From: a virus
Direction: 5' to 3' (one strand)
Length of the DNA stretch: 62,151 bases
Virus record (IMG/VR): IMGVR_UViG_3300049203_000084
Span: 1 to 62,151 of that record
Part shown: piece by piece, positions 2,943 through 34,054 of the stretch
Layout of the letters: each line of letters begins with the position of its first letter
Numbering within the stretch: the stretch's first letter is position 1
The notes under the pieces: generated by a model
Database searches by the model: none
What the model saw: the letters and a program-made list of their open reading frames with translations, nothing else
Told to the model about the DNA's origin: nothing
Program-made: the position numbers and the translations under genes

Positions 2943-4568
2943 TCAGCGTTTGTCCTGCTGCGCGTCCTTGCGGTACGAGTTGTCACCGTAGGACTTGGCC
3001 GTCGAGGCGTCCTTCTTCACCTTTGGACCCTTGCCTCCAGCGGGCAGGGCCTTTGGCCCCGGAGTTCCCGGCACACCACCAGCGGGCTTCTCCTTGGCCA
3101 GCTTCTCGGCGTGCTCGGCTGCCTTCTCGGCAGCCTCGGCCTGCATCTTGGCTTCAAGGATCAGGTTGCCCAGCTCCTCCTCGGTGGGCACCTTCTCGGG
3201 GTCCAGGGTCTGCAGGTCGAGTACCTTGACGATGAGCTTGCGCATCTCCTTGTCCGAGAACAGGTTCAGCGGCAGCAGCGAGACAATCGACTGAATCTGG
3301 CGGTAGACGGCCTCTTCCTCGATCTTCGGGAAGATGACCTTCACGTCGAAGCCGAGGTAGTTGAAGATCGCCTCGAAGAACATCTTGTGCTCCGACTGGC
3401 GGGCGCGCATGACCTTCTCGTTGGAGCCGGTCAGCGTCTCAGCCGAGGCGCGGTTGGCGTTCCCGGCGTCGGCGGTCAGCTCGTTCAGCGGCACGTTCAG
3501 GCCAGCGGCGACGTAGCCCGCCAGCGGCAGGCCAGCCTCGAAGTCCACGGAGCCGCCCGTGCGGCCCACCGAGGAGATGGTGGCACCCATGCCGGTGACA
3601 GCGGTTGCACCCACGGACTGGGGCTGGCCGGTCATCGGATCGAGCGTGGGGCTCGTGGCCACCTTGGTGGCAGCAGCCTTGGCGTTGGCAGCCGTGGGGG
3701 TGGCCACCTTCCAGGCGAACCGCGAGTAGGCCTTGACCAGCGTGGCCTGCGACTCCAGAAACTCCTTGTGCGCCTTGGCCCAGAAGATCACGCTCAGCAG
3801 GTCAGGCACACCCCACTTCCAGCCAGCCTGCTTGTTGACGCTGTGGCCTGCGATGCGCTGGTCCAGAATGACCGGCTTGCCCTTGAAGCGCCGGGGCCTG
3901 CCGTTGGACTCGTCATAGTCGATGGCCGGGTAGTAGGCCACCCTGTCCTCAACCTTCTCCTCCACGGAGTTGGCCTTGGTGACGGTGACCTTCCACTCGC
4001 GGCGGTAGAACCAGATTTCCTCCGAGTTCTCGGGGTTTGAAATCGTTCCGGTGATCTGCCGCATGGGGATGCGCGCCACTGCGCCGGTCTTGGACTTGGC
4101 ACCGGGCTTGGTGACCATCAGGAAGAAGTTGCCGTCCGTGCCAAGGCACTGCTCCAGCTCCTGCCACGCCTTGTCCGAGAGCAGGTACTTCTGGTTGACG
4201 GGGTTCTTGACGAACTCCTCGTGCTCCTCCAGCCCTTCAAGGATGACGCCGTTGCCCCAGATGTAGGCCGTGCGCACCGCGAGACCCCGCTTGATGAGGG
4301 GGTTGATGACCGCGAGAGCCCGAGTGACGTTGGTGTAGCCCTTGATGGCCGACAGCGGCAGCTCGTTCATGTCGGCGTCTTCACCGAGCGGACGCCAGCC
4401 GATGTTGTCCAGCGCCAGCTGCACGTCGGCCAGCGACTCGGCCAGCTCGATGACCTTGCCGGACAGGGCCGCGTTGGCTGCCGTCACCTCGGCCAGCTCG
4501 GTCGATGTCGGAGTTCCTGCCGCCTCCGAGACTGCCACCTGCTGGCGCGCTGCACGTTTCCTGGACAT
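2943..4568 (-). CDS. Portal protein
   Basis: A 541-residue protein expected to form the dodecameric ring at the capsid vertex through which DNA enters and leaves. Assignment rests on size, the central region rich in aromatic/charged portal-like segments, an Ala/Lys/Glu-rich C-terminal tail, and the order terL-portal-protease-capsid. The start at 4568 is chosen because TTTAGGAG precedes it at good spacing; a longer reading to 4619 lacks a site. An extended -10-like box lies at 4610-4618. No truncation is seen. Confidence 0.8.
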   Translation of the reverse strand: MSRKRAARQQVAVSEAAGTPTSTELAEVTAANAALSGKVIELAESLADVQLALDNIGWRPLGEDADMNELPLSAIKGYTNVTRALAVINPLIKRGLAVRTAYIWGNGVILEGLEEHEEFVKNPVNQKYLLSDKAWQELEQCLGTDGNFFLMVTKPGAKSKTGAVARIPMRQITGTISNPENSEEIWFYRREWKVTVTKANSVEEKVEDRVAYYPAIDYDESNGRPRRFKGKPVILDQRIAGHSVNKQAGWKWGVPDLLSVIFWAKAHKEFLESQATLVKAYSRFAWKVATPTAANAKAAATKVATSPTLDPMTGQPQSVGATAVTGMGATISSVGRTGGSVDFEAGLPLAGYVAAGLNVPLNELTADAGNANRASAETLTGSNEKVMRARQSEHKMFFEAIFNYLGFDVKVIFPKIEEEAVYRQIQSIVSLLPLNLFSDKEMRKLIVKVLDLQTLDPEKVPTEEELGNLILEAKMQAEAAEKAAEHAEKLAKEKPAGGVPGTPGPKALPAGGKGPKVKKDASTAKSYGDNSYRKDAQQDKR

Positions 4569-7680: not shown

Positions 7681-7741
7681 TGGACTGCCGGGTCTCGAAC
7701 CCGGGATGCTCCCGGCAGGTACACCCTGCTAAGCCAGTCCA
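7681..7741 (-). ncRNA. Compact tRNA-like structure without D arm
   Basis: Sixty-one nt on the minus strand. The acceptor pairs perfectly (TGGACTG with CAGTCCA), and the T arm is canonical (CCGGG, loop TTCGAGA, CCCGG). Only 30 nt lie between them; these form one hairpin GCAGG-GTGTA-CCTGC plus a linker, so a full D arm and a 7-nt anticodon loop are absent. It lies six bases from the 7565-7674 element. It could be a tRNA remnant, a decoy or an RNase P-type processing signal. Confidence 0.5.
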
Positions 7742-7899: not shown

Positions 7900-7911
7900 C
7901 TCGCTCAGGAG

Positions 7912-31041: not shown

Positions 31042-31623
31042 ATGGCACGTCTTAGCCTCAACGTAGACCAGGAAACCTTCGAGAACGCCGGTCGGAGCTT
31101 CACGCCGGTCCCGCAAGGTGACTACAAGGTCAGCATCTTCGCCATCACCCCTGACGAGGTGAAGAACGGCGAGAACAAGGGCAAGCCTCGGCTGAAGTTC
31201 CAGTTCCGCATCGCGGACGGGGAAGAAGCCCCCGATGGCACCAAGCAGGGCAACCGCCGCCTGTTCTCCGACATCAACGCCTTCGACGGCGTGGACAAGA
31301 AGACCAACAAGCCCACCCCGCCGTTCGACCTCGTGGCCATCGGCAAGGCTCTCGGCTACAGCGCCGAAGACCTGAAAGACCTCGACACGGACGACTGGCT
31401 GGGCGAGGAACTGCAGGTCACCGTCAAGCACACCCGCAAGCAGCATCAGGTGAACGGCGCTTGGGTCAACATCGAGCCCGCCGAGTACCGCGAGACGGTC
31501 CGGGGCTACCGCTCCCTGGCCTCCGTCGAGACCTCGGTAGCCGCCGCTGCAGCCGTCGCAGGCAAGGCCCCCGCAGCCTCCACCGGCAAGGCCAAGGCTG
31601 CCGGAGCCAAGTTCAAGCTCTAG
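31042..31623 (+). CDS. ssDNA-binding/recombination mediator-like (DUF669-type)
   Basis: A 193-residue protein. The first 150 residues form an OB-like beta domain (GDYKVSIFAITPDEVK, LKFQFRIADG, ELQVTVKHTRK); the tail is Ala/Lys-rich and ends AKFKL. Position after the RecA-like ATPase matches single-strand-binding or DUF669-type proteins in actinophages. Exact family uncertain. Confidence 0.65.
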   Translation: MARLSLNVDQETFENAGRSFTPVPQGDYKVSIFAITPDEVKNGENKGKPRLKFQFRIADGEEAPDGTKQGNRRLFSDINAFDGVDKKTNKPTPPFDLVAIGKALGYSAEDLKDLDTDDWLGEELQVTVKHTRKQHQVNGAWVNIEPAEYRETVRGYRSLASVETSVAAAAAVAGKAPAASTGKAKAAGAKFKL

Positions 31624-31654
31624 GCCCCCCACCCACCACGCACCAACGAACCCC

Positions 31655-31665
31655 AAAGGAGGTGA
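31655..31665 (+). promoter_or_regulatory. Very strong Shine-Dalgarno before an 8-codon ORF
   Basis: AAAGGAGGTGA is a full match to the 16S anti-SD tail, far stronger than other sites in this phage, and precedes the ATG at 31672. Confidence 0.7.
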
Positions 31666-31671
31666 CCCATT

Positions 31672-31698
31672 ATGTGGCGCTGGATCATTTCTCACTAG
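31672..31698 (+). CDS. Leader peptide MWRWIISH
   Basis: Nine codons including stop. Two Trp codons among eight suggest ribosome-stalling control. It lies between the strongest ribosome site in the window and a tRNA-like fold followed by a terminator. It may be a regulatory leader; the peptide itself may have no other role. Confidence 0.5.
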   Translation: MWRWIISH

Positions 31699-31705
31699 CA
31701 GTACC

Positions 31706-31751
31706 GCCCAGCCTGTGAAGGCACACAGCCCGTTCGAGACGGGCGCTGGGC
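31706..31751 (+). ncRNA. Mini tRNA-like structure in the early operon
   Basis: Forty-six nt folding as a three-way junction: 7 bp acceptor-like stem GCCCAGC/GCTGGGC, a 4 bp stem TGTG-AAGG-CACA in place of the D/anticodon arms, and a canonical T arm GCCCG-TTCGAGA-CGGGC. The T loop has the same seven bases as in 7681-7741. An acceptor plus T arm is the minimal bacterial RNase P substrate. Confidence 0.55.
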
Positions 31752-31766
31752 ACTAGGCAATATCCG

Positions 31767-31790
31767 GGCCAGCGGAAGCTGGCCTTTTTA
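31767..31790 (+). terminator. Strong terminator before primase
   Basis: GGCCAGC-GGAA-GCTGGCC with TTTTTA directly after. The tetraloop is of GNRA type. It lies inside an operon, upstream of essential replication genes, so anti-termination or attenuation is expected. Confidence 0.85.
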
Positions 31791-31808: not shown

Positions 31809-31838
31809 ATGCGTATCAAAGCAAGTGGGGGAGCATGA
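31809..31838 (+). CDS. Coupling mini-ORF MRIKASGGA
   Basis: Nine codons behind CAGGAGCAACGCTA; its TGA overlaps the ATG of the primase gene (ATGA). It may recruit ribosomes to the primase start, which also has GGGGGAGC inside this mini-ORF. Confidence 0.4.
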   Translation: MRIKASGGA

Positions 31839-34054
31839 GCCAGCAGGACGAGTTCACCACATTTCTCTGGGAAGGGCTTGAAGGCCGAGCGGTCATCGCC
31901 CTCATGGACGAGCGGGGAGCCCCTACCAACCAGCGGTTCTTCAGCTGGCCGGAGCAGAAGGCGCAGCTGCTGGGGTACACCGCCAAGCAGGCCGCGCACG
32001 ACACCTACACCTCACCGTCCCTGTTCCGGGCCACCAACGCCCGCAAGCGCAGCGTCAAGTGCATCCAGGTGGTCCACGCCGACGCCGACACCTTCAACGT
32101 CGAGGACGCCCTGCTGGAGCCGTCCGGCATCGCCACCACCTCCGAGGGCAAGACGCACCTCTACTGGAAGATCACGGACTGCCATGACCCGGCCCTGATC
32201 GAACCGCTCGCGCACTCGGTCTCGGACACCCACGACAAGGCAGAGACCGGGCTGGACAACGGCTGGGCCGTCAACAAGCTCCTCCGTGTGCCGGGAACCT
32301 CAAACACCAAGTATGACGAGCCGTTCCTTGTCACTTTCGAGAACACCGGCCTGACCTACACGCTGGACGAGTTCGCCGCAGCCTACCCGCCCGTCGAGCA
32401 CACCTCCGTGCTGAACGCGGACATGGGCGAACTGCCCAGCTACCCGGCAGCCCTGAAGTCCCTGAAGGCCTCGCCCAAGCTCCTGGAACTGCTGAACAAA
32501 AAAGTCGCGGGCAACGTGGACCGCTCCGACGCGCTGTTCCTGCTGCACAACGAGGTCTTCCGCTGCGGCGGCACCAACGAGGTGGCTTTCGTCATCGCCC
32601 AGAACCACGTCCTGAACAAGTTCAACGAGAAGAACAACTCGGACGAACTGCTCTGGGAGGACGTGCTGCGCGCCCGGTCCAAGTCCGAGATTGGTGAGAC
32701 CGAGGACGAGGAGCTGGAAGGCGTCAACGTCACCGTCGAGCCCAGCGTCAAGGACAAGTCCGTGGACTTCCTCTCGGCCACCGAGAAGGCAGGCCTGCAG
32801 CGCACGTTCGTGGATGACTACATCGCATGGGCTACCTCCAAGACCGACGCCGCGCAGGAATACCACGTCGCCTCGGCCTTCATGATCCTCTCGACCGTGT
32901 TCTCCGACTTCGGCCACGCGGTCCCCAAGTTCGGCAGGTTGCCGTTGAACCTCTGGTTTATGGTGCTCGGGGAGACCACCCGCTCCCGGAAGTCCACCAC
33001 CCGCGCGCTCGGCCTGCAGTTCATCAAGGCCCTCGCCGTGGTGCCCGAGACGGAGGGCGAGGTGGACTTCAACTATGACCTCGGCTCCGACTTCACCCCG
33101 GAAGCCCTGGACAACGAACTGCTGAAGCGTCCCAACCGCTCGGCCCTGCTGCACCGCGATGAGGCGCAGGGCTGGATTCAGGAAATGGACAAGAAGGCCT
33201 ACATGGCTGGGGCCAAGGGCAAGATGACCGAGCTGTACGACGGCCACGTCTCCGGCAAGCTGCGCGCCACGGGCGATAACAACCGGCGCGGCTCGGTGGA
33301 CGTGGCCCTGACCCTGTTTATGATGGGCATCGCCTCGCAGGTGGCTGACTACCTGACGCAGGACGACTTTCGCTCAGGCTTCCTGACCCGCTTCATCTAC
33401 ATCGAGGCCACCCCGCCGCCGCGCTCGGCCCAGTCCGACTGGCTGGAGCAGGCCGACATCCACGAGGTCAAGCAGGGTGACGAGGTGTTCACCGCGATGG
33501 TGAAGCGCATCGAGACCGCCCGGAACCACTGGGCCAGCTTTGCGGACCCCGACGCTCCCACGGTGCCGGTTCCCTGTGTGCCGGAAGCGTGGCTGCGGCT
33601 GAACAAGTTCATCACCGACGTGCTGGACGCAGCCGAGGGCCACCAGCGCCACCAGATCATCGAGGCAGCCAGTGACCGTCTCACCAAGTCCATCCTGAAG
33701 GCAGCCACCCTCCTGGCGATGCTCGACTGCTGCGACAAGGTGCAGGTGCCCCACATGCTCGCGGCCATCAACTTCGCCAGCAGCTGGTTCACCCACATGG
33801 TCAACATGGCCAACCGCATCTCCGAGTCCAGCTGGGCGCGCAGGCAGACGCAGGTTGAGGAGTTCCTGCTGGAGAAGGGCGGCACGGCCAAGTGGGAGGT
33901 GGTCTACCGGCAGTTCCGGCAAGACCTCCGGGCCGATGAGTTCCTGAAGATCATCCAGGCGCTGCAGGACGCAGGCATCATCATGGTCACCCCGTCAGAG
34001 AAGGGCGTCCGGTGGATCACCCGCGTTGACATTGATGAGGAGCTGGCCGCGTAA
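31835..34054 (+). CDS. Primase-polymerase/helicase fusion
   Basis: A 739-residue protein. The N-terminal third resembles archaeo-eukaryotic primases: VVHADADTFN carries a D-x-D pair, and SEGKTHLYWKI matches the following conserved strand. The rest is helicase-like with a P-loop-type LGETTRSRKSTT (about 380) and acidic LLHRDEAQGW as Walker B. It would prime and unwind DNA during phage replication. It begins after the leader/tRNA-like/terminator element at 31655-31790. Confidence 0.78.
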   Translation: MSQQDEFTTFLWEGLEGRAVIALMDERGAPTNQRFFSWPEQKAQLLGYTAKQAAHDTYTSPSLFRATNARKRSVKCIQVVHADADTFNVEDALLEPSGIATTSEGKTHLYWKITDCHDPALIEPLAHSVSDTHDKAETGLDNGWAVNKLLRVPGTSNTKYDEPFLVTFENTGLTYTLDEFAAAYPPVEHTSVLNADMGELPSYPAALKSLKASPKLLELLNKKVAGNVDRSDALFLLHNEVFRCGGTNEVAFVIAQNHVLNKFNEKNNSDELLWEDVLRARSKSEIGETEDEELEGVNVTVEPSVKDKSVDFLSATEKAGLQRTFVDDYIAWATSKTDAAQEYHVASAFMILSTVFSDFGHAVPKFGRLPLNLWFMVLGETTRSRKSTTRALGLQFIKALAVVPETEGEVDFNYDLGSDFTPEALDNELLKRPNRSALLHRDEAQGWIQEMDKKAYMAGAKGKMTELYDGHVSGKLRATGDNNRRGSVDVALTLFMMGIASQVADYLTQDDFRSGFLTRFIYIEATPPPRSAQSDWLEQADIHEVKQGDEVFTAMVKRIETARNHWASFADPDAPTVPVPCVPEAWLRLNKFITDVLDAAEGHQRHQIIEAASDRLTKSILKAATLLAMLDCCDKVQVPHMLAAINFASSWFTHMVNMANRISESSWARRQTQVEEFLLEKGGTAKWEVVYRQFRQDLRADEFLKIIQALQDAGIIMVTPSEKGVRWITRVDIDEELAA

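What the first reader, a model, noticed from the sequence alone, without database searches (positions are those of the whole stretch)
31706..31751. 46-nt mini tRNA-like element inside the early operon
A three-way junction of acceptor-like stem (7 bp), a tiny 4 bp hairpin and a canonical T arm. The T loop is identical to that at 7681-7741. RNase P needs little more than acceptor plus T arm (established knowledge), so it may be an mRNA cutting signal that separates recombination from replication genes. Together with the 7.5-8.0 kb block it points to a shared theme of reduced tRNA mimics.
Basis: partly seen in the sequence, partly recalled or inferred. Interest (0 to 1): 0.72.

Follow-up and report, generated by a model that had tools for sequence, protein, structure and literature searches.

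The report
Anticodon-less mini-tRNA as gene punctuation
A 46-base RNA element between two phage genes has the top half of a transfer RNA without its decoding arm, and unannotated elements of the same plan sit just after gene ends in several unrelated phages (up to ten in one genome), so phages may use tRNA imitations as cut marks in their messages.

Summary
The 46-nt element at 31706-31751 is real: fold z -3.2, pairing probability about 0.996 in context, and compensatory changes in all three stems among relatives. It lies 7 nt after a stop codon and 15 nt before an intrinsic terminator, between ssb and the primase gene. The small hairpin is best read as a D-arm remnant, making the element a tRNA without its anticodon arm.

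Close relatives have it at this junction. More distant ones have a real tRNA, an odd tRNA, a mini-tRNA fused to the terminator, or (a minority) nothing there. A whole-genome scan of nine phages gave 15 top-half hits against 0.2 expected; all seven of 50 nt or less were at the ssb-primase junction. Two cultured Streptomyces phages, phiScoe3 and Izzy, carry 8 and 10 different 40-41-nt versions, every one intergenic, most starting 6-15 nt after a stop codon. ARAGORN and Rfam find none of these.

This argues for a cis-acting gene-end module. RNase P cutting at its 5' edge is the best explanation (about 0.5), but nothing at RNA level was tested. New variant of a known kind (tRNA punctuation, tRNA-like RNase P substrates).

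The parts
31042..31623 (+). ssb (single-strand DNA-binding protein) gene, upstream neighbour
   Evidence: PHROG 378 E 1.8e-8
31655..31665 (+). strong Shine-Dalgarno AAAGGAGGTGA of an inserted short ORF
   Evidence: sequence; similar insertion in L003
31672..31698 (+). short ORF MWRWIISH*, inserted between ssb and the element; its stop codon again lies 7 nt before the element
   Evidence: sequence; W-x-W-I peptide also in L003
31706..31751 (+). mini-tRNA-like element (acceptor + D-arm-like hairpin + T arm), no anticodon arm
31706..31712 (+). acceptor stem, 5' strand; predicted RNase P cut between 31705 and 31706
   Evidence: pair counts; cut inferred
31714..31727 (+). D-arm-like hairpin UGUG-AAGG(CA)-CACA; two registers possible
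31728..31744 (+). T arm GCCCG-UUCGAGA-CGGGC
31745..31751 (+). acceptor stem, 3' strand
31752..31754 (+). ACU, position of the discriminator base and CC of the RNase P 3' RCC contact
   Evidence: ACT in 19 and AC in 24 of 25 copies
31766..31789 (+). intrinsic terminator (8-bp stem, GGAA loop, U tract)
   Evidence: a hairpin follows at the same place in relatives
31809..31838 (+). 9-codon ORF overlapping the primase start (ATGA), similar in relatives
   Evidence: sequence
31835..34054 (+). DNA primase/helicase gene, downstream neighbour
   Evidence: PHROG 10514 E 1.8e-188
7682..7740 (-). second reduced tRNA-like element (59 nt, same T loop, ACT 3')

Best explanation
A gene-end punctuation module in cis. 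SHOWN by sequence: just after the upstream stop codon the transcript can fold into a tRNA top half (acceptor stem next to T arm, 11-13 nt from T loop to a 3' A-C), with a D-loop-like GGC motif but no anticodon arm, followed by a terminator or another GC hairpin. INFERRED: host RNase P reads the acceptor/T-arm length and the elbow and cuts at the 5' edge of the element (31705/31706), ending the ssb mRNA about 7 nt after a stop codon and separating it from whatever passes the terminator into the primase gene. Any RNase P substrate could do this, which would explain why different relatives have a tRNA-His, -Leu, -Val or -Asn, odd tRNAs, or minis at the same junction.
For: Covariation. T-loop-to-discriminator distance 11-13 nt in 25/25 copies, A-C 3' in 24/25. 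All seven hits of 50 nt or less in nine genomes lie at the ssb-primase junction; 15 hits against 0.2 in shuffles. Different tRNAs at the same junction. phiScoe3 and Izzy carry 8 and 10 different 40-41-nt versions, all intergenic although only 9-10% of the genome is, all on the strand of the flanking genes; 0 in shuffles; stems 100% paired with 8 pairs changed on both sides. L032: three copies start 7-10 nt after stop codons. Position-locked RGCR motif 8 nt before the T stem in 25 of 32 linkers. The HNH-type insertion that splits the element in L005 brings a second mini-tRNA. RNase P is known to cut phage RNAs, mRNAs, tmRNA and plant-virus tRNA-like ends (PMC4919922, PMC12710915).
Against: No RNA evidence of any kind. 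The T-loop consensus is lost in about 5 of 25 copies (L004, L008 group, L018, L052, L080), and the tRNA-invariant G53-C61 pair is not G-C in 8 of 25. The 3' end is mostly ACU, not ACC; U75 would have to wobble with the RNase P RNA (inference). CMP1, Quantum, Nonagon, L083 and L084 have no detectable element at this junction. Predicted acceptor pairing in +/-90 nt context is poor for some relatives, e.g. L013 and L006.
Confidence: 0.5

Rival explanations
1. A protective 3' end: after termination the tRNA-like structure stays on the upstream mRNA, is trimmed and perhaps CCA-tailed, and shields that mRNA, as tRNA-like 3' ends do in some plant RNA viruses. RNase P does not cut it.
For: The element always lies between a stop codon and a terminator or hairpin. 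In L076, L080, L094 and L095 the acceptor stem runs straight into ACU(C)UUUU, so mini and terminator are fused.
Against: Any stable hairpin would do, yet the acceptor/T-arm length, T loop and GGC motif are kept in most copies; a 5' leader on such a fold is the normal RNase P substrate.
Confidence: 0.17
2. A small RNA acting in trans: the mini-tRNA is released and titrates a host or defence protein that binds the tRNA top half.
For: Tight structure with elbow motifs; near-identical phages carry quite different versions (L006/L020: flanks 97-100%, element 62% identical), which could mean an arms race.
Against: Up to ten different copies per genome, each after a gene end, and a conserved place at the ssb-primase junction, fit a cis role better.
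Confidence: 0.1
3. A transcription or translation switch: ribosomes ending at the nearby stop codon affect folding of the element and so read-through of the terminator into the primase gene.
For: Short stop-to-element spacing, kept in the window and in L003 although a short W-x-W-I ORF was inserted; terminator 15 nt downstream.
Against: No conserved alternative pairing between element and terminator was seen by eye; terminator stems differ between relatives with the same element; full tRNAs occur at the same place.
Confidence: 0.1
4. A DNA-level site, such as a target of homing endonucleases or recombination, that happens to look like a tRNA.
For: An HNH-type insertion lies in the T arm in L005; whole elements appear exchanged between near-identical genomes.
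Against: Compensatory changes keep RNA pairing; all 18 copies in phiScoe3 and Izzy are oriented with the genes.
Confidence: 0.06
5. Decaying tRNA relics without function.
For: Full and odd tRNAs at the same junction in relatives suggest descent from tRNA genes.
Against: Strong covariation, and independent minis in CN1A, L035, L030 and the Streptomyces phages.
Confidence: 0.03

Closest known systems
tRNA punctuation of mitochondrial polycistronic RNA, and plant mitochondrial t-elements
   Same: tRNA or tRNA-like folds between genes that mark processing sites for RNase P
   Different: Organelles, mostly full tRNAs; here dsDNA phages, with an anticodon-less form of about 40-51 nt in many different copies next to terminators or hairpins
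Phage RNase P substrates: C4 antisense RNA of P1/P7 and the phi80-induced RNA
   Same: Phage RNA cut by RNase P
   Different: Those are known as single RNAs, C4 a trans-acting antisense RNA; here a gene-end element after protein-coding genes. No Rfam hit
MALAT1 mascRNA
   Same: Small tRNA-like fold below a transcript, released by RNase P (own knowledge)
   Different: Eukaryotic, about 60 nt; no Rfam match here
tRNA-like domain of tmRNA
   Same: Acceptor + T arm + reduced D region, no anticodon
   Different: No message or pseudoknots; ARAGORN and Rfam give no tmRNA for the minis
3' tRNA-like structures of plant RNA viruses
   Same: tRNA mimic at an RNA 3' end, can be cut by RNase P (PMC12710915)
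   Different: Those rest on a pseudoknot and end in CCA; here an ordinary acceptor stem and mostly ACU

Membership tests
canonical tRNA | anticodon arm | tested here: not met
   Linker of 10-22 nt holds at most one small hairpin; ARAGORN and Rfam tRNA do not detect it
canonical tRNA | acceptor + T arm of 12 bp and T loop UUCRANN | tested here: met
   Window 7+5 bp, UUCGAGA; across 25 copies 11-13 nt, U1/A5 in 20
tRNA-like RNase P substrate / tRNA punctuation | tRNA top-half fold directly at a gene boundary on the coding strand | tested here: met
tRNA-like RNase P substrate / tRNA punctuation | cleavage by RNase P at the 5' edge | not testable with these tools
   No RNA data or assay available
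tRNA-like RNase P substrate / tRNA punctuation | 3' RCC(A) contact | tested here: inconclusive
   AC in 24/25, ACC in 3/25, ACU in 19/25
Known Rfam RNA families (tmRNA, mascRNA, C4 and others) | score above the gathering threshold | tested here: not met
Intrinsic terminator | GC hairpin followed at once by a U tract | tested here: not met
   For the element itself; a separate terminator follows at 31766. Met only by the fused forms in L076/L080/L094/L095

The most novel reading that the evidence does not exclude
Several unrelated lineages of dsDNA phages punctuate their transcripts with anticodon-less mini-tRNAs, some with eight to ten different copies per genome, so that host RNase P turns polycistronic phage RNA into single-gene messages: a tRNA-punctuation system outside organelles built from purpose-made reduced tRNAs.
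Probability: 0.4. Interest if true: 0.92.

Novelty: new variant of a known kind. Interest (0 to 1): 0.82.

Why it matters
It would be a recurrent, so far unannotated RNA element class in phage genomes, including cultured Streptomyces and Clavibacter phages, and one that standard tRNA and Rfam scans miss. It suggests how phages can set different expression for neighbouring genes of one transcript with a host enzyme that every cell has. It gives a natural set of minimal RNase P substrates and a plausible origin: tRNA genes at gene ends that lost their decoding arm.

Tried and rejected
Attenuator by alternative pairing of element and terminator: possible by eye only in the window, not in relatives. 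Readthrough or frameshift stimulator: the frame through the element is not conserved. GC-skew turning point at the element (origin): none there, the cumulative skew falls smoothly from about 26 to 40 kb. Aminoacylation identity: acceptor sequences differ freely between copies. Host or prophage search: no primase relative in genome contigs. DNA similarity search with the element and flanks: no phage hit. An alternative hairpin using the inner acceptor bases (GTGC/GCAC) fits some relatives, but L002 and L018 less well. The MAFFT alignments A1/A2 misplaced some rows, so A4 and a hand alignment were used. Ten paper searches found no description of these elements; a likely relevant paper on R4-like Streptomyces phages (DOI 10.1128/JB.00618-13) is not held, so prior description cannot be excluded.

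Full report
OBSERVATION. The element is present as described: GCCCAGC / C / UGUG-AAGG-CACA / CA / GCCCG-UUCGAGA-CGGGC / GCUGGGC, then ACUAGG. It folds with z -3.18 alone, and with acceptor pairing probability of about 0.996 in +/-90 nt of its own transcript. The whole 177-nt intergenic stretch is not unusually stable (z -1.5). ARAGORN and Rfam do not see it. An intrinsic terminator follows at 31766-31789.

SURROUNDINGS. Upstream is ssb, downstream a DNA primase/helicase. In most close relatives the ssb stop codon lies 7-9 nt before the element. In the window and in L003 a short ORF (MWRWIISH; MSGFWAWIMHF) with a strong ribosome-binding site has been inserted, and its stop codon again lies 7-8 nt before the element. 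After the terminator comes a 9-codon ORF that overlaps the primase start.

CONSERVATION. IMG/VR relatives (20 loci, primase 71-85% identical) were compared. 97.1% of cells are paired against 85.0 +/- 1.4% in shuffles; 8 of 16 pairs have changes on both sides; slid controls fall to 25-60%. RNAalifold gives -20.3 against -1.8 +/- 1.6 in column shuffles. The covariance model finds the element once per genome in the relatives checked that carry it. Many acceptor changes come as blocks: CAG-type and GTG-type elements appear exchanged between close genomes (L006/L020: flanks 97-100% identical, element 62%). So the number of independent events is smaller than the cell counts, but the exchange itself shows that the fold, not the sequence, is kept.

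THE JUNCTION. In more distant relatives the ssb-primase junction holds: tRNA-His (L071); two tRNAs, one with an 8-nt anticodon loop, in Amigo/Molivia; tRNA-Leu plus an odd one in Yappy; four tRNAs and a message-less tmRNA-like RNA in Jojan60; tRNA-Leu in WaterT, tRNA-Val in ISF9 and tRNA-Asn in the cyanophage Pan2; odd tRNA-likes in L078, L079, L082, L086, L088 and DejaVu; minis in L073, L092 and CN1A; and minis fused to a U tract in L076, L080, L094, L095. None was found in L083, L084, L096, Nonagon, Quantum or CMP1. On the primase tree the minis and fused minis form one clade of 21 rows with a single tRNA-His inside, and CN1A is separate, so minis probably arose at least twice in this family; long branches make deep placements unsure. 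A phage with a different primase type, L035, has a mini between a small gene of unknown family (PHROG 870) and a primase/polymerase gene.

WHOLE-GENOME CONTROL. A strict descriptor (T loop UU[CU]RANN, T stem + acceptor 11-12 bp, A-C 3') gave 15 hits in 519 kb of nine genomes against 0.2 in shuffles. All seven of 50 nt or less are at the ssb-primase junction (44-47 nt, largely unrelated sequences); of the eight longer ones only Molivia's is there. The nine genomes are related, so this is not nine independent trials. In the T4 tRNA region and the Manuel tRNA array a relaxed version finds most full-length tRNAs, plus one 27-nt hit in Manuel without the 3' A-C, and no mini.

MULTI-COPY FORM. Loci that share the T-arm string led to L032, where 40-42-nt minis start 7-10 nt after three stop codons, and from there to two cultured, annotated phages. 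phiScoe3 (Camvirus) has 8 and Izzy (Likavirus) 10 copies of 40-41 nt: 5-bp acceptor, 10-11-nt linker with GGCA, 6-7-bp T stem, UUCGAG[UCG], then AC. All are intergenic and on the strand of the flanking genes; 14 of 18 begin 6-15 nt after a stop codon and the rest 18-39 nt; shuffles give 0.0. Across 18 distinct copies (two from L032 included) 100% of cells pair and 8 of 11 pairs have changes on both sides. These copies were found by a descriptor that asks for pairing, so the 100% is partly built in; the zero background in shuffles is the independent control.

WHAT THE SMALL HAIRPIN IS. An [AG]GC[AG] motif lies in 30 of 32 distinct linkers (shuffle mean 6.4, max 15), in 25 cases exactly 8 nt before the T stem; many of these linkers are related. 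In real tRNAs, including the window's tRNA-Ser (D loop AAAGGCA), GG of the D loop contacts the T loop. I therefore read the hairpin as a D-arm remnant and the mini as a tRNA without its anticodon arm. The D-loop reading is inference; the motif is shown.

MECHANISM. What is kept (12-bp acceptor/T-arm stack, T loop, GG motif, 3' A-C) is what RNase P is known to use; what is lost is what only translation needs. What varies (which tRNA, which sequence) argues against a specific tRNA function. The place (after stop codons, before a terminator or hairpin, many copies per genome) argues for cis. Hence RNase P punctuation at 0.5, with a protective 3' end as the main rival. Literature supports RNase P cutting phage RNAs, mRNAs and tRNA-like ends in general (PMC4919922, PMC12710915), not this element.

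LIMITS. No RNA data. Copies within one family are not independent. The descriptor is home-made. The literature library is partial.

Noticed in passing
L057:2880-2962 (Stenotrophomonas phage Jojan60): tmRNA-like RNA of only 83 nt: Rfam tmRNA hit spanning model 1-374, i.e. the tRNA-like domain without message, ending in CCA, directly upstream of the primase gene.
   Followed up: partly
window 31624-31698; L003 about 3945-4019: Inserted short ORF encoding W-x-W-I-(I/M) peptides with a strong ribosome-binding site between ssb and the mini-tRNA.
   Followed up: partly
L005:4370-4970: An insertion that seems to carry an HNH-type ORF splits the mini-tRNA in its T arm and brings another mini-tRNA (4416-4461).
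   Followed up: partly
L006/L020, L010/L011, L013/L014: Near-identical phage loci carry different versions of the element with identical or very similar flanks: possible cassette exchange or diversifying selection.
   Followed up: partly
window 7911-7980 (-): tRNA called Ser(UGA) but only 70 nt, without the long variable arm usual for tRNA-Ser; with the 7682-7740 element, part of a block of odd tRNA-likes followed by ACT.
   Followed up: no
L056:2615-2768, L074:3174-3251: Amigovirus tRNAs with 8-nt anticodon loops or undetermined anticodon at the ssb-primase junction.
   Followed up: no
L124:1582-1716 (phage vB_MoxS-ISF9): A tRNA-Val overlaps the annotated start of the primase CDS, so the start codon is probably annotated too far upstream.
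   Followed up: no
L030:1625-8235 (-): An unrelated 61-kb phage with several odd tRNA-likes and two minis, one ending in ACCA, in a run of small genes.
   Followed up: partly
window 31809-31838: 9-codon ORF overlapping the primase start codon (ATGA), with similar ORFs in relatives: likely translational coupling.
   Followed up: no
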